From: Mrakia gelida
Taxonomy: Eukaryota > Basidiomycota > Tremellomycetes > Cystofilobasidiales > Mrakiaceae
Length of the DNA: 64,000 nucleotides
Assembly (NCBI GenBank): GCA_024345305.1
Contig: BRON01000013.1
Coordinates: 496,001 to 560,000 of the forward strand
Direction of reading: 5' to 3'
Shown here: in pieces, positions 16,888 to 30,558 of the stretch
How the letters are laid out: every line of letters starts with the position of its first letter
Numbering within the stretch: the first letter of the stretch is position 1
Translations under genes and position numbers: made by a program
The notes under the pieces: model-generated
What the model saw: the letters and a program-made list of their open reading frames with translations, nothing else
Databases searched by the model: none
Told to the model about the DNA's origin: nothing

Positions 16888-19800
16888 ATGCCCTCTACCA
16901 TCCGTTCCTCCAGTGGCGTGCGCGTCCACGACCCTGTCCTTCACGATCCAACGATGATCTACGCTCCTTCGCCCGCGCTGTCTCGCGTTCCGAGTGGGAG
17001 CAAGACGCCTGATATCGAGCAGGAGGGGAAGAAGGGGAAAGTCGAGAGCCAGAGTAAGAATGTAGTTCTTGGGAGGAGTAGTTTCGGAAGGTGAGTCTCG
17101 TGGTTTCCCTATCGTAGGCGTGAGTCTGGAGGTACAGGAGGAGGGGAGGAACGAAGGGAGGAGATTGAAGGGAGGGAGGAAGATTGAAGCGAAGGGGGCT
17201 TGGGCTGGGCGAGTTGCAAGACGGAGGGCTGAAGAGCTACCTGCCTCTCAGAACCCTCAGGAGGGACTACTGGGGAGCAGAGCTTTCTACTGGCAAGCTC
17301 ATACCAGCAGTCGATGCGCTGGCGAAGGTCTGGGAGAGGCTGGAAGGAAGAGTGGGAAGGAAGCCGAAGCTCAATTCTCTCCTCCCTTCGCTCACAACCG
17401 ACTTTGCTCGACGGTCGTGAGCTTCCTCGCATCTCTTTGTCTCTCTCCTCAGGGAGGAAGAGGATATATGCGAGCGACGAGGTCCTCATCGACCTGCGCA
17501 TCTGCAGCTTTGCTATGGAGAAAGGACAGAGCTCAGGTCCCCGCCCCGCCCTCCCCTCCCCTTCGTCAAACCCTCCCCCGGTCCTTCATTCGTCCTATCG
17601 AACGGTTGACTGATTTATCCCTTTGCTCTGCTCTCTTTTTACAAACCAGACCTCCGTGGTAGGTATTCACTTCATCTCCTCTGCCTGCAGTCTTGTTATG
17701 CTGTGGCAGAAGCTCACCTCCTGCTCTCCTTCCCTCGCCTCGCCTCTCGAAGGTACGATCAAACGGGGAAAGCTCGTCCTGCGTTCGTCATTGGAATCGC
17801 TGGTGGAAGTGCTAGTGGAAAGGTGAGCTTCTTCTCTCCATCTCCTCTTCGTGGTTCTATGCTGACTCTGACGTTTTCGCTCGCTTTCTACAGACGAGCG
17901 TGGCGAGGGAGATCTTACGTCTGCTCGATCATGTTCCCAACGTCCTCATCCTCTCGCAGGACTCGTTCTACCGGTACCACGAACAAGACGAGATCGATCT
18001 CGCCTTTGCCAACGAGCTGGACTTCGATCATCCTAGTGCGATTGATTTCGGATTGTTCAAGGAGGTGCTGGAGGAGCTGAGGTTGGGGAACAGCGTCGAG
18101 GTGAGTCGAGAATCGAGATTGGTCGCTCGTTTGTTTCGAGTCGAGTATGGTTGAGCTGATGGCTCACGGCCTTCGTATTCCCTTCGTCCGTGCTGTCTCG
18201 TGTTTCTAGATCCGTGAGTTCGAGCATCAGGAAGGAAACGAGAAGCGACGCGTCGGCTGATCACCTCCCGTCTCGTCTTTCGTTCCATCAGCCATCTACT
18301 CGTTCGTGACGCATCAGCGTCTACCGGAAACTCAATACCTTTACGGAGCATCGGTCATCATCGTCGAAGGAATCCTCGCTCTTCAAGACGAGAGCCTGAG
18401 GGAGCTGTTCGATCTGAAAGGTCCGTTCGACACCTTTGTCCGTTTCGCTTGATGATCGTCTGACCCGTCTTTGCTCTTCCCAACGAACCGATCAGTCTTC
18501 GTCAACGTGAGTACTTGTATTCCCATCCGTGGAAGGAACCTCAAACTGACTCTGCTCCATCTTCCCTTTCCAGTGTGACGTGAGTCATTCATTCCCTTCG
18601 CCTCGACGCGTCTCGATCCGCCGGCGGCTGACCTTTCTTCTTCCCTCCTTCAGACCGATCTCATGCTTGCTCGTCGGATTCGAAGGGATGTCGAGGAGCG
18701 AGGACGTGACGTGATGGGTATCATCGATCAGTATCTGAGGTGCGTCTTTGGTTGACTTTCGACGAGTCGTAGAAACAAAGCTTGACGCGACTTCTCTTTC
18801 GTCTCCAGATTCGTCAAACCAAGTTATGACAACTTCGTGCAGCCGAGTTCCAAGTTCGCTGATATCATCGTCCCAGGAGCGCAGAACAACGGTAAGCTCA
18901 CACGTTCTCGCTCATCTTTCTTTTCCGACGACTTCTCGCTGATCTCGACGTCAACTCGCTTTCACACTCCTCAGTCGCCGTCGAGCTCATCGTCACCCAC
19001 ATCCGTCGTCAACTCTCCGACCGTTCCCTACGATTCCGTTCCCAACTCTCCACCGCCTCCCCAGGGACCAACACGCCATCGTCCTCCTCCCCTCCCAACC
19101 TCGTTCTCCTGGAGCAGACCTCTGGCCTCTCCGTCCTCGTCACCTTCCTCAGGGATCGAGAAACAGGACGAGACGATTTCATTCAGTTCAGTGACCGTCT
19201 AGCTACCTTGTCAGTCTTTCTTCCTCCCTCCTCTCTGCTCCAACGAGATGAACCTCGTCGCTGACTCTCTCTCTGTCTTCAATCGCACTCAGGGTCGTGG
19301 AGAAGGCGCTCAGTTTGCTGCCGTATCGAGATCAGATGGTCACGACTCCCCTCGATCTAGAGACTCTTGGAAAAGCTCTAGATGTGAGCTCGGTGAGCGT
19401 CGTGTGACGGGGACTCGAGTCGAGCAAGACGAGGACGGGACTGACGCGACTTTTCGCTCGCTCTTCTTTCGCAGGACGTCGTGGGAGTTTCCGTCGCTCG
19501 ATCGTGGGTTCTTCAAATTTACGCTGTACCTTCGAGCGCTCGTACTGACTCCCATTACGTTCTATCGTCTTGCAGAGGAGGACCTCTCGAGAAGGGTCTG
19601 CGTCGAGTCGTTTCGGACGCTCGTCTCGGTTCTCTTCTTATTCACGTTCGTATCTCGGTCTTTATCTCTCCCTAGTGAGCGTAGTGCCGACGCGACCCGT
19701 TTTACGTATCCCAGAACGACGAGAAGACCCAAGAACCCCTCCTCTACAACACCACCCTGCCCGCCGTCCTCAAATCCGCTCGAACAGCAGAGAAGTCCTG

Positions 19801-25108: not shown

Positions 25109-28100
25109 TCAAGCGTACCCCCACTTCCCTCGCCCCTTCGCCCAAGTATCCAGCTTCAGCGTAGGCTCAGTCTCCAGCCCACTCTTGAGGTGTCCAGCGG
25201 CGAGTCCAGCGACTCGTTGGTCGGCGTGAAGGAATCCTACTCCTGATCCTCCAACGGCGGTGAGGTAGGGAGCGAAGCCTTCTGAGCTGAGGGACGCGAC
25301 GAGGGTGTCGAGGACGGGGGCCGGGAGGTCTGGGAGGAGAGAAAAGAGGGAACGGTAAGTTTCGCGAGAGATGAGACGGCGAACGAGGCGGAGGAAGAGG
25401 ACGTACGATCAGGAATGAGAGTGACAGCGCAACCTCCTCCTCCAGCTCCGGTGAGCTTGGTGTGAAGGTTGAAAGGCGCGGCCGAGGTGAGAGAGATGAT
25501 CTTCTCGAGCGAGGGATGCGAGACTCCAAGAGCAGCAAGGTGGAAGTGGTTCTCGGTGATCAGACCCTGTGAGAAACGAATGAGAAGGTCAGCGCTCGAG
25601 TCGAGTCGACGCGACGAAAGCGAGCAAAGGAGAAGAACGAACCTCGAGACCCCCGATCAGCTCCTCCCTTCCCATCTCAGCGTCGCTCAGACACCTCTTG
25701 GCCTCGTCTGAGATGGACTGGATAGCCTCGAGGATGGGCTCGATAACCTCAGGCTCCTTCGCGAGTCGAGCTCCAACTCCAGCGACGAGAGACTTCGTGT
25801 CTCGACCGACTCGAGAATCGGTGATCAGGAATCGAACGGAGGCGAAGCTGTAAGATAAAGTGGGAGGTGGTCAGTGCTGCGTCGAGGTTAAGGCGGGTCT
25901 TGACCAAGAAAGCCAAACGTACCTCTTCATTCCCTCCATTCCTCCCTCTCCTCGCTGAGGCGTCGTCTTCCTGAACGCGACGGCTCCTCCCCTCACACTG
26001 ACGGCGTTGTCGATTCCACTGGGGTTCCCGTGGATGACCTTCTCGGAGAGGAAAGCCCACTTGTCGATGATCTCGATGGAAGCTGCGTCGATGGCTCGTC
26101 GACCGTTGTGGGAGATGTGAATGTGCTGAGGAGTGGCGAGAGCGGGGAGACGAGGAGGAGTAACAATCTTGTGGTGGAGGAGGAGGGCGAGGGAGATGCA
26201 GGTGGAGTAGGCGGCGGAGGAGCCGAGTCCGGCACCCATGGGGAGAGCTGAACGAGCGGTGAAGGTGATGGAGGACCTAGTGGAGCGGACGGAACGAACG
26301 AGGGTCAGCTCGAGCGAAGATGATGGACCTTCGTCCAGACGCGTAAACTCACTGGTCTCGTCCGGTTCCGAGCAGCACTAGCAGGTAGAGGAAAGCAGCG
26401 ACCGAAACCTTCTCCCTGGGTCCAGACGAAGCCTCAGCGAGCTCCTCGACTCGGTTGAGGAGAATCTCGTCGAGAGCGACTGGTGCGTTGTCGATCGACC
26501 AGGAAGGAGCGAGATCCCAAGGGAGAACCGACGAGTCCCAGGTTTGCGAGAACTCGAGATCGGGGAGGACGAGGGTGACTTTCGCAGAGGAGGTGGTGGA
26601 GGGAGCAGAGGATGTGAGGACTCCGTAGCATCGAAGGTCGACCGACGCGGCGATTCCGGTCTGGAACGACGAGGAGGAAAGGGAAAGCAAGTTAGCGTTC
26701 GCAAGCTTGCAGGATGGGAGACGTAGATCGAGAAGAAAATGATAGAGTATAATGAAGTGCTGCGAGCGGGTCTAGGAAAGAGCAAAGATACGAGCAAAGC
26801 GAAATGCAAGGGGAGATTCGAGCGACGAAGATACAAAGAAGGCTAGATGCAAGAAGAGTACAAGACCGAGACGAAAAGGAAAGTGAGGGAGGTGAAGAGA
26901 GAGAGAGTCTCAAGGACTCACCACGCCATGAACGACAGCGTGCTCTCCGAACAAGATAACCTTCCCAGGCGCCGACACCGCGATCTCGTCCTTGACTGCC
27001 TCCTCCTCCCTGAGGGTGATCTGGGCGAGAGCGGCCGAGATGTCGCTGGCGGAAGGTCGAACTCGCTCGAAGGTCTGAGCTCGCTTGATGACCCATTCCT
27101 CGTTGGCGTAAAGGGGAGTAGGGAGGGCGTGGAAGGAGTCGATGAAGGGAGCGGAGGGTTTGGATCGGATGGCTCCGGAGTCGAGGAGGGAGGTTTCGAG
27201 GTCGTCGATGAGGTCGTGAGGGTCCTCGATTCCGATGCACAGACGGATGAGATCCTCGGGGAGTCCTCGCTCGGCTCGAAGGTGGGCAGGGATGGAGGCG
27301 TGGCTGATGAGACGAAGAAGGGGAGGAGGAAAGTCAGCCTTCGCTCGAAGAGGGAACGCGAAGAGGACGTGTAGAGGAACCGAAGACTGACCTCATCAAG
27401 CAAGGCATACTGATCAAACTGTTGACGGCTCCGAAACTGACACTGATACCCCAGATCCTCGTTCCACTGACGATTCCCTCGCTCAAGACGACGTCGCCCG
27501 TCTCGAAACTCATGACTCCTCCAGCTCCGGTGGCCTGCTTGAAGTGAAGCTCGTGTCCAGGATCGGCCTTGAGTCCAGGGTAGTGAACCTTGAAGCCGAG
27601 AGTGTGAAGGTAGGTGGCGATGAGGTTGCACGAGGCTTGCTGTCGATCCATTCGGAGAGGGAGGGTTTTGACTGGGGAAGGGGAAGGAGAGGGTCAGCGA
27701 GCGAAAGAGGTAGAGTAGAGCGAGGAAGGGGAAATGAACTCACGTCCTCGAAGAAGAAGGAAACAGTCGAAGGGAGCGAGAGCAGTTCCCATGGCGTTGA
27801 CGAACCAAGCGAGTCGCTGAGGAGGGAGGAAGAGGAGGGAAGGGAGGTTCAGCCAACGTCCCAACTCGTCGCTCGTCAGGCTCATAGATCAACGAGACTC
27901 ACCTTTCCAACCTCCTCAGTCCTAGCAGTAACGATTCCAGCCATCAAGTCGTGGTGACCACTGAGGAACTTGGTTCCAGAGTCGTAGCAGATGTCGACAC
28001 CGAGGTCGAGAGGTCGTTGCAGGTAAGGCGACATCATGGTGTTGTCCGCGACGATGAGAGCGTCCTGGATCCAGCCAAACGAGAGCAGAGGTCAGTTTCC

Positions 28101-29072
28101 CTTCCTTGACAGCGAGGAAATGCAAGAAAGCGAGCGGAAGAAGAGGAGGAGGGACGAACGGGAGCACCAGCTCGAACGATGGCAACGATGGCAGCGATAT
28201 CGGCGATCTTGAGCATGGGGTTGGTAGGACTCTCGAGCAGAACCATGGTGACCTTGTTCTGTCCGGGGATGAGGAAGGGAGCGAGAGCAGCGGCATCGGA
28301 GGTGTTGCAGTGGATCACTTTCTGTTGAAGGCGAAGACGAAGAGGGTCGGAGGGAGGGAGGGAGGGAATGGTTCGATGATTAGCGCCTCTTCGAATCAAC
28401 CTTCTAAAGACGATGAAGAGAGCTTCAACTCACGACTCCTCCGTCAGTCCCGAGCCATCCTAGCAGCCTGTTGGTTCCACCGTAAAGATCGTCTCCGGCG
28501 AGGACGGTATCTCCAGGCTTGACGAGTCGAAGGATGAGGTCGAGAGCGGACATTCCCGACCCAACGGCGTGAGCGGAGGCGGCTGAGGAGATCTTCTTGA
28601 GATGGTGCTCTGATTGATCATAAGAGGAGAAGGAAGAGAAGAGTCAGATCATGAGATGGAGAAGTGTTGGGGAGCGACAGGAGGAAGAGGGGGGAGGTGG
28701 GAAGGAAGGGAAGGGAGAGGGAAGCTCACCTAGGAAACTCCTGGTTGGGTTCCCCGAACGACTATAATCGAACTGTCCTCCCATCCCCTTGAACGTAGCA
28801 GTCTGGTAGATGGGCACACTCGAACTACCATGTTGATCTCGTAGACTCGGTGAAGGGTTCTCTACAGTCGCACTGCAAGAAGAGGGAGGGCAAGCGGTTC
28901 AGCTTCGATTCTTTGGAAGGAGCGAGCGAGGACCGAGAGGGACGAACCATTCGGTTGCGAATCTCCAGTTGCGACGAGAGGAAGGAGGAAGAGAAGAGGA
29001 TTCCGACAGTTCAGATTGGGCGAGAGAGTCGGGAGGAGTGTTGAGAGAGGAGAGATCAGGTTCAGGCGACAT
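25109..29072 (-). CDS. Fusion protein: cystathionine beta-lyase + mevalonate kinase
   Basis: One gene from ATG 29072-29070 (MSPEPDLSSLNTPPDSLAQS) to the stop at 25111-25109. N-terminal half: PLP enzyme of the Cys/Met group with SSVPIYQTATFKGMGGQFDY, SRSGNPTRSFL, AVGSGMSALDLILRLVKPGD, DDLYGGTNRLLGWLG, ESPTNPMLKIADI, IVADNTMMSPYLQRPLDLGV and the PLP lysine in YDSGTKFLSGHHDLMAGI, ending LPEDLIRLCIGIEDPHDLID. This converts cystathionine to homocysteine. After a linker of about 60 residues, the same exon starts a complete GHMP kinase: DEIAVSAPGKVILFGEHAVV, then ALPMGAGLGSSAAYSTCISL, NPSGIDNAVSVRGG and HTKLTGAGGGGCAVTLI, ending KLDTWAKGRGKWGYA. This is mevalonate kinase. All three kinase motifs and the PLP lysine are intact. 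No targeting signal is seen; cytosol is inferred. The junction is described separately. Confidence 0.9.
26922..27303 (-). other. Junction exon of the cystathionine beta-lyase/mevalonate kinase fusion
   Basis: Exon bounded by an ATCAG acceptor (27306-27304 side) and a GTGAGT donor at 26921-26916. Read codon by codon it contains no stop and no ATG. It encodes HASIPAHLRAERGLPEDLIR (lyase end), a linker including IDSFHALPTPLYANEEWVIK and RPSASDISAALAQITLREEE, and DEIAVSAPGKVILFGEHAVV (kinase motif 1). A separately translated kinase would therefore lack an initiation codon before its first essential motif. Confidence 0.9.
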
Positions 29073-29411: not shown

Positions 29412-29825
29412 TTAACGATCATCCACATCTACAGGTCTAGCGGTCCTCAGTTTCTCCAGAGCATCAGCCGTCTCCCTCTTTCTCTTCTTCTCCCTCGCGA
29501 TTCTCAACTCCCTGTCCGCTCGTTTCTCGCTGCTGAACGCCTCGACAGTCTCCTCCCAGTACGGTGGACGAAACCCTCCGATGAAAAGGTAGGTTCCGGC
29601 GAGTAAGGTCCCTGTGATTGCGGTCTGGGAGGAGAGGAAAGCAAGAGAGTAGTAGTCGAGACGAGGGAGGTGAGCTTCAGTCCGGCGGTCAGACAGAGAT
29701 CAGCGCTCAGCAGAGGAGGGGGAATCAGCGAAACTCACCCCAAGAGGAGTTGATATCACGTTCGTCGTCCCATAGATCTTATCTGAGAGTTTGTAGTAGT
29801 CTTCGAAGTATCTTGCCCAGGTCAT
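29412..29825 (-). CDS. Small single-membrane-segment protein, tandem paralogue A
   Basis: Two exons. Exon 1 from ATG 29825-29823 encodes MTWARYFEDYYKLSDKIYGT with TNVISTPLG; exon 2 encodes TAITGTLLAGTYLFIGGFRP, then PYWEETVEAFSSEKRADREL and a basic, charged helix to PVDVDDR and stop TAA (29414-29412). About 99 residues, with one hydrophobic segment followed by 'F/G-x-x-PPYW(E/D)E' and a long Arg/Lys/Glu helix. The neighbouring gene at 29992-30323 has the same plan and exon-intron position, so the two are tandem paralogues. The layout resembles small inner-mitochondrial-membrane or respiratory accessory proteins, but I recognise no family. Confidence 0.6.
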
Positions 29826-29991: not shown

Positions 29992-30323
29992 TTATCCATC
30001 TCCCGTGAACCTCTCTTTACTCAACCTCTGCAGCCTTAACCGCTCTTCCTCCGACCTCGTCTCCCTCGCCTTCCTGATCGCCCTATCCGCTTGTTTCTCC
30101 TTCGCGAAGAGCTCGATGAACTCGTCCCAGTAGGGCGGGGTGTATCCTTGGTCGGCTACCCACCAGCCGAATGCCAAGGGTGGGATCTGGGAGGGAGGGC
30201 AGGAAGGAGGGACGAGAAAGTGGCGAGGTGAGCGAGAGAGTGGGCTCGAGAGGACGGAAAGAGCAAGCTCACCGAGGAGTAGCGGATCCTCAGGAAAGGT
30301 ATCTTCGAGTTCATGAAGCTCAT
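29992..30323 (-). CDS. Small single-membrane-segment protein, tandem paralogue B
   Basis: Exon 1 from ATG 30323-30321 encodes MSFMNSKIPFLRIRYSS; exon 2 encodes IPPLAFGWWVADQGYTPPYW, DEFIELFAKEKQADRAIRKA and RETRSEEERLRLQRLSKERF, with stop TAA at 29994-29992. About 80 residues. It shares with paralogue A the segment 'PPYW(D/E)E', 'F(A/S)xEK(Q/R)ADR' and the charged helix; the N-terminal exon differs. A membrane segment is short. Function unknown. Confidence 0.6.
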
Positions 30324-30558
30324 GCTGAGCGAGATGGCTGTTGAGAGGTCACAAGCTCACAGCGTTGAAACAGCTCGTCGAACAGATCCCTCGACCGGCA
30401 CGACGCGTCCTCACCTTCTTCGTTTCACCCGGCCGCTCGACTTTTTCCACCCTCAGCACCACCATACAGACAATCAGTGAACTGACATACTGATCCTTGA
30501 CGTCCTCCAAAGATCTCCTCTCTCACCTCCCTCCACTCCCTCCCTCCCTCCTCGCTCT

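What the first reader, a model, noticed from the sequence alone, without database searches (positions are those of the whole stretch)
25109..29072. A natural fusion of cystathionine beta-lyase and mevalonate kinase in one gene
Exon 27303-26922, read codon by codon, runs from the C-terminal helix of a complete PLP lyase (…LPEDLIRLCIGIEDPHDLID…) through a linker of about 60 residues into mevalonate kinase motif 1 (…SAPGKVILFGEHAVV…) with no stop and no ATG. Both enzymes keep their key residues: PLP Lys in SGTKFLSGHH; GLGSSAA; GAGGGG. I know of no described protein joining these families. Inference: methionine synthesis (leading to SAM, which methylates sterols) and the mevalonate pathway (sterols, carotenoids) could be co-expressed at fixed ratio. 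A shared promoter and shared half-life would follow, and the linker could let each domain sense the other's metabolite.
Basis: partly seen in the sequence, partly recalled or inferred. Interest (0 to 1): 0.95.

Follow-up and report, generated by a model that had tools for sequence, protein, structure and literature searches.

The report
Known basidiomycete two-enzyme fusion gene
The gene really does join a methionine-making enzyme to a sterol-pathway enzyme in one protein, but this fusion was described in mushrooms in 2012 and also occurs in many yeasts, smuts and other basidiomycete fungi, so this is one more ordinary copy.

Summary
Minus strand 29072..25109 reads as 13 GT-AG exons encoding one 916-residue protein: a eukaryotic cystathionine beta-lyase, a linker of about 67 residues, then mevalonate kinase, with no stop and no Met in the linker. 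Both halves pass NCBI's curated cut-offs and keep their active-site motifs. No second copy of the kinase was found in the genome.

The claim that no such protein has been described is wrong. Liu et al. 2012 (PMC3342255) reported this 'metC-MVK' fusion in 12 basidiomycetes as their only mevalonate kinase homologue; papers of 2013 and 2014 found it again. My searches list the same architecture in Agaricomycotina, Pucciniomycotina (Rhodotorula, Sporobolomyces, Microbotryum, Mixia), Ustilaginomycotina (Ustilago, Tilletia, Malassezia) and Wallemia; rusts were not seen. The gene tree groups sequences by subphylum, so one fusion in the basidiomycete ancestor is the likely origin. The window's copy is sister to Phaffia (100/100), so the host is probably a Tremellomycete, not a Microbotryomycete. 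Why the fusion is kept is untested; cross-sensing through the linker looks unlikely because the linker varies widely.

The parts
25109..29072 (-). whole coding region, ATG to TGA, 13 exons: 29072-28948, 28872-28730, 28609-28434, 28321-28160, 28064-27903, 27816-27744, 27671-27392, 27303-26922, 26660-26353, 26276-25923, 25847-25643, 25566-25407, 25329-25109
   Evidence: all introns GT-AG, frame kept, 917 codons including stop; splice sites inferred from sequence, no cDNA
27186..28841 (-). cystathionine beta-lyase domain (residues 53-413), exons 2-8
   Evidence: PF01053 385.2 bits; TIGR01329 489.5 bits, cut-off 487.5; best solved relative by sequence 1ibj, cystathionine beta-lyase, E 4e-103; coordinates
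27969..27971 (-). PLP-binding lysine codon (K234 in SGTKFLSGHH)
   Evidence: coordinates; aligned with the lysine of SATKF in 1ibj; catalytic role recalled, not looked up
26979..27179 (-). inter-domain linker, about residues 416-482, inside exon 8, no Met
   Evidence: poorly conserved
25112..26978 (-). mevalonate kinase domain (residues 483-916), exons 8-13
   Evidence: TIGR00549 209 bits, cut-off 163.05; best solved relative by sequence 1kvk, mevalonate kinase, E 1.9e-66; coordinates
26940..26975 (-). kinase motif 1 SAPGKVILFGEH (residues 484-495)
   Evidence: aligned with 1kvk
26210..26236 (-). kinase motif 2 GAGLGSSAA (residues 618-626)
   Evidence: aligned with 1kvk
25432..25449 (-). kinase motif 3 GAGGGG (residues 830-835)
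   Evidence: aligned with 1kvk

Best explanation
This is the basidiomycete metC-MVK (cystathionine beta-lyase / mevalonate kinase) gene. One mRNA is translated into one polypeptide of 916 residues. The N-terminal half cleaves cystathionine to homocysteine (methionine and SAM supply); the C-terminal half phosphorylates mevalonate (sterols, carotenoids). The two fold as separate enzymes joined by a variable, probably flexible linker. The join most likely arose once, in the ancestor of Basidiomycota, and was inherited vertically. It fixes co-expression at 1:1. Shown: open frame, both families at curated cut-offs, active-site motifs, wide occurrence in the phylum, no second kinase found, gene tree grouping by subphylum. 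Inferred: that both activities are present, that the protein is not cleaved, that the fusion persists mainly because re-splitting would need a new promoter and start codon rather than for a special regulatory link, and the single origin.
For: Gene model; both NCBIfam equivalog cut-offs passed; both domains in 119 of 120 listed hits and 119 of 120 (query itself included; my reading of the tables, the same protein P0018 being the exception in both); 203 of the 323 protein records held show both the PLP-Lys motif and kinase motif 1; gene tree of 31 chosen relatives plus the window groups Ustilagino-, Puccinio- and Agaricomycotina (100/100, 100/99 and 95/94); kinase-half search of the own genome finds exons of this locus and one other match, at E 0.47; the other two GHMP_N hits read as homoserine kinase and mevalonate diphosphate decarboxylase (my reading of motifs, no family scan); published fusion, including a unigene from mycelium.
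Against: No transcript or protein data for this organism. In other species 68 of 196 linkers contain a Met, so internal starts are possible there. Three records of unnamed origin (P0128, P0150, P0152) have the kinase start without a clear lyase tail; P0150 begins at a Met in its linker. Liu et al. report Laccaria bicolor as an exception. The lyase half passes its curated cut-off only narrowly (489.5 against 487.5).
Confidence: 0.94

Rival explanations
1. Two separate neighbouring genes, joined here only by assembly error, a lost stop codon or a wrong gene model.
For: No cDNA for this organism; gene callers do merge neighbours.
Against: The junction lies inside one exon with no stop; the same join with both domains is listed from many separately named genomes; a published mycelial unigene carries both halves.
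Confidence: 0.01
2. The gene is fused but the working kinase is a separate protein, made by internal initiation, an alternative first exon or proteolysis in the linker.
For: Linker is variable and mostly of low confidence in the structure model; 68 of 196 linkers contain Met; a Phaffia record lists a 315-aa mevalonate kinase (P0126).
Against: In the window no Met lies between residue 373 and motif 1 at 484. P0126 starts at residue 597 of the fused Phaffia protein and lacks motif 1, so it looks truncated. Of the 8 basidiomycete-named hits I counted among the 120 listed in the kinase-only search, 5 carry a lyase domain and 3 are truncated; none is a complete stand-alone kinase.
Confidence: 0.08
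3. The fusion is kept because it couples the pathways: homocysteine/SAM and mevalonate or prenyl phosphates act across domains, or the lyase tetramer serves as a scaffold that sets the kinase's assembly.
For: Present in all three basidiomycete subphyla sampled, so splitting it seems disfavoured; ergosterol synthesis uses SAM (recalled). SREBP targets a gene called mevalonate kinase in Ganoderma lingzhi (passages), which would place the lyase under sterol control if that gene is fused; I did not check that it is.
Against: No conserved linker element seen: length 36-162 residues, low sequence conservation. No functional data in the passages seen. The structure model was too weak to show or exclude a domain interface.
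Confidence: 0.2

Closest known systems
metC-MVK fusion of Ganoderma lucidum and other basidiomycetes (Liu et al. 2012, PMC3342255; abstract passage, section 10 and one discussion passage seen)
   Same: Same order, lyase then kinase; similar length (average ~886 aa reported, 916 here); only mevalonate kinase homologue; confined to basidiomycetes in that study
   Different: Different species, near Phaffia; linker 67 aa by the measure, longer than the median of 49 aa among 196 linkers there
Fused Phaffia rhodozyma protein (P0002, 905 aa, named 'mevalonate kinase')
   Same: Full fusion; 58% identity over query residues 300-720; sister in the tree
   Different: Only sequence divergence seen
Stand-alone mevalonate kinases of Ascomycota, Mucoromycota and other fungi
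   Same: Kinase domain 35-46% identical in the named non-basidiomycete records listed
   Different: No lyase domain precomputed in those records
Cystathionine beta-lyase 1ibj (Arabidopsis) and mevalonate kinase 1kvk
   Same: Best solved relatives by sequence of each half
   Different: Each is a single-enzyme protein

Membership tests
eukaryotic cystathionine beta-lyase (TIGR01329) | score over curated cut-off | tested here: met
   489.5 against 487.5 bits, narrow
eukaryotic cystathionine beta-lyase (TIGR01329) | PLP lysine and surrounding motif | tested here: met
   SGTKFLSGHH 231-240, aligned to 1ibj
eukaryotic cystathionine beta-lyase (TIGR01329) | cystathionine beta-lyase activity | not testable with these tools
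   needs enzyme assay
mevalonate kinase (TIGR00549) | score over curated cut-off | tested here: met
   209 against 163.05 bits
mevalonate kinase (TIGR00549) | three GHMP motifs plus Lys, Glu and Asp of the active site | tested here: met
   SAPGK (K488), SEKVIHGNPSGIDN (E682, D693), GAGLGSSAA, GAGGGG, aligned to 1kvk; roles of the residues recalled
mevalonate kinase (TIGR00549) | mevalonate kinase activity | not testable with these tools
   needs enzyme assay
basidiomycete metC-MVK fusion | lyase N-terminal and kinase C-terminal in one frame, ~900 aa | tested here: met
basidiomycete metC-MVK fusion | only mevalonate kinase homologue in the genome | tested here: met
   exon-by-exon search that scores only the best candidates; a very divergent copy could be missed
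basidiomycete metC-MVK fusion | host is a basidiomycete | tested here: met
   sister to Phaffia, 100/100; rests on this protein alone
basidiomycete metC-MVK fusion | 16-residue insertion in the kinase part (7 of 12 species in Liu et al.) | not tested
   the insertion's letters are in a figure that is not held

The most novel reading that the evidence does not exclude
The fusion is kept throughout Basidiomycota because it does regulatory work: sulfur/SAM supply and isoprenoid entry are tied by a shared promoter, shared turnover and a joint lyase-kinase assembly, so a methionine-synthesis enzyme is under sterol control across a whole phylum.
Probability: 0.2. Interest if true: 0.5.

Novelty: already known. 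Interest (0 to 1): 0.15.

Why it matters
The fusion helps explain why mevalonate kinase is easily overlooked in basidiomycete annotation: many of the listed records are named cystathionine beta-lyase, and only two of 120 rows show a name with mevalonate kinase (P0002, P0046). It is a candidate molecular marker for Basidiomycota, and its purpose is an open question. The passages I saw in the papers report no functional test of the fused protein; I ran no search aimed at its enzymology.

Tried and rejected
Rejected: assembly or gene-model artefact (conserved widely). Rejected, with the limits of the search: a second kinase in the genome. The best GHMP_N hit (C8) reads as homoserine kinase and the second (C7) as mevalonate diphosphate decarboxylase. 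The one other match of the kinase search, C1:672179, E 0.47, was taken as noise and not read. Rejected: Microbotryomycetes as host.

Checked, against my reading: 20 short records, chosen by me out of the 120 listed: P0126 (Phaffia) plus 19 without an organism name; other short records were not examined. Three show a lyase tail by my pattern (P0123, P0141, P0145), and P0163 and P0127 show one by eye. P0128, P0150 and P0152 have motif 1 with no clear lyase tail: P0128 and P0152 do not begin with Met, and P0150 begins at a Met that matches a place in the linker of P0148. The other 12, P0126 included, show no motif 1. I read these as truncated or mispredicted, but split genes are not excluded. Liu et al. 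name Laccaria bicolor as an exception; not followed up.

Limits of the counts: 120 of the 323 records held did not show both motifs; they include stand-alone kinases and fragments and P0001, a wrong-frame translation of exon 8. Of the 203 that did, 7 dropped out of the linker count because my lyase-end pattern failed. The conservation figures use 27 proteins chosen by me from the 120 (no Ustilaginomycotina), on Phaffia's long linker with gap-majority columns scored zero, so the linker value is biased low. The tree uses 31 relatives chosen by me, is rooted at the midpoint for drawing only, marks two forks open (one of them the Agaricomycotina-plus-Wallemia fork, 95/94), and Wallemia's place is unsure because of its long branch. 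Only 120 rows of 960, 7314 and 2383 hits were visible; rust fungi do not appear in them, so they were not tested.

Led nowhere: the AlphaFold2 model of the Phaffia relative (27 sequences) has mean pLDDT 70.4 and pTM 0.47, so it says nothing reliable about domain packing; the 50 Foldseek matches shown, of 1792, are all enzymes of the lyase family. A Phaffia proteomics paper (PMC4404605, passages) lists a mevalonate kinase spot; the word kDa does not occur in its text. Paper searches returned nothing.

Full report
What is there. On the minus strand, 29072 to 25109 reads as 13 exons with GT-AG introns and an unbroken frame of 917 codons including the stop. Residues 53-413 are a Cys/Met-metabolism PLP enzyme; residues 601-639 and 787-844 match the two GHMP-kinase domains. 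NCBI's curated models name the halves: cystathionine beta-lyase (TIGR01329, 489.5 bits, cut-off 487.5, a narrow pass) and mevalonate kinase (TIGR00549, 209 bits, cut-off 163.05). The best solved relatives by sequence are cystathionine beta-lyase 1ibj and mevalonate kinase 1kvk. Active-site motifs are intact in both.

Is it single copy? A search of the whole assembly (34.86 Mb, 25 contigs) with the kinase half found exons of this locus plus one match at E 0.47 that I took as noise without reading it. The other two GHMP_N hits read as homoserine kinase and mevalonate diphosphate decarboxylase (by motif, not scanned). The lyase half also maps mainly here; weaker hits on C3, C9 and C12 (26-47% identity) are presumably its usual relatives such as cystathionine gamma-lyase, which I did not identify further.

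Is it known? Yes. Liu et al. 2012 (PMC3342255; section 10 read) describe a gene in 12 basidiomycetes, 'metC-MVK', with cystathionine beta-lyase at the N-terminus and mevalonate kinase at the C-terminus, average ~886 aa, the only homologue of mevalonate kinase, and not found outside basidiomycetes; Laccaria bicolor was their exception. They place its origin in the ancestor of Basidiomycota (passage). A 2013 study of Pleurocybella porrigens found it as a mycelial unigene (PMC3720577, passages), and a 2014 genome of Lignosus rhinocerotis found a 918-aa copy (PMC4129116, passages).

How wide is it? In one search, 119 of 120 listed relatives carry both a lyase and a GHMP domain, seeded with a metagenome relative whose closest named hits are smut fungi, again 119 of 120, the query included (my reading of the tables; P0018 lacks a precomputed GHMP domain in both). 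Named hosts cover Agaricomycetes, Dacrymycetes, Tremellomycetes, Wallemia, Microbotryomycetes (Rhodotorula, Sporobolomyces, Microbotryum, Leucosporidium), Mixia, smuts (Ustilago, Sporisorium), Tilletia, Exobasidium and Malassezia. In the kinase-only search, where candidates are limited to 0.55-1.75 times the query's length, I counted 8 basidiomycete-named hits among the 120 listed; 5 carry the lyase domain and 3 are truncated. The named records there from Ascomycota, Mucoromycota and other fungi show no lyase domain. Some records without organism name lack the lyase part too; I examined 19 of them and found most truncated, with three unclear. The lists stop at 120 rows, so I cannot say what lies further down, and rusts were not seen.

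Origin. A tree of 31 chosen fused proteins plus the window groups Ustilaginomycotina (100/100), Pucciniomycotina (100/99) and Agaricomycotina with Wallemia (95/94). It is unrooted in fact (midpoint drawing) and Wallemia's branch is long, but the grouping fits one ancient fusion and vertical descent. The window's protein pairs with Phaffia (100/100) and then with Cryptococcus, Kwoniella and Tremella; it also shares with them a linker stretch of the form W...RA..[FY].R that the four Microbotryomycetes shown lack. The host is therefore most likely a Tremellomycete related to Phaffia (order Cystofilobasidiales, recalled).

How it works. The simplest reading is two independent enzymes on one chain. 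Among 27 chosen fusions, mean majority-residue frequency is 0.82 in the lyase, 0.65 in the kinase and 0.20 in the linker, the last biased low because gap-majority columns count zero. Linkers range from 36 to 162 residues among 196, which argues against a conserved sensing element. The structure model was too weak to judge packing. Co-expression at 1:1 follows from the gene; metabolic coupling remains untested. In Ganoderma lingzhi the regulator SREBP targets a gene called mevalonate kinase (PMC9810662, passages); if that gene is the fusion, which I did not check, sterol signals would also set the lyase's level.

Verdict. A real and correctly read feature, already described, here in one more species.

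Noticed in passing
window 29412-29699 (-) and 29992-30348 (-): Two adjacent small open frames just upstream share 39% identity over 54 residues with no Pfam match; they look like tandem copies of an unnamed small gene.
   Followed up: partly
P0126 (UniRef A0A1C9U6B5, Phaffia rhodozyma): Record called mevalonate kinase, 315 aa, begins at residue 597 of the fused Phaffia protein and lacks kinase motif 1; probably a truncated gene model.
   Followed up: yes
P0114 (Wallemia ichthyophaga): The fused protein is 1391 aa, several hundred residues longer than the others, with a long branch in the tree; extra domain or merged gene model not examined.
   Followed up: no
linkers of P0002, P0003, P0010, P0017, P0044, P0058 and the window: A linker stretch W...RA..[FY].R shared by the Tremellomycetes shown; the AlphaFold2 model of P0002 draws a short helix there, 431-443.
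   Followed up: partly
window 17610-18080 (+): Frame contains FVIGIAGGSASGK, which looks like a uridine kinase start (from memory; no Pfam match for this fragment).
   Followed up: no
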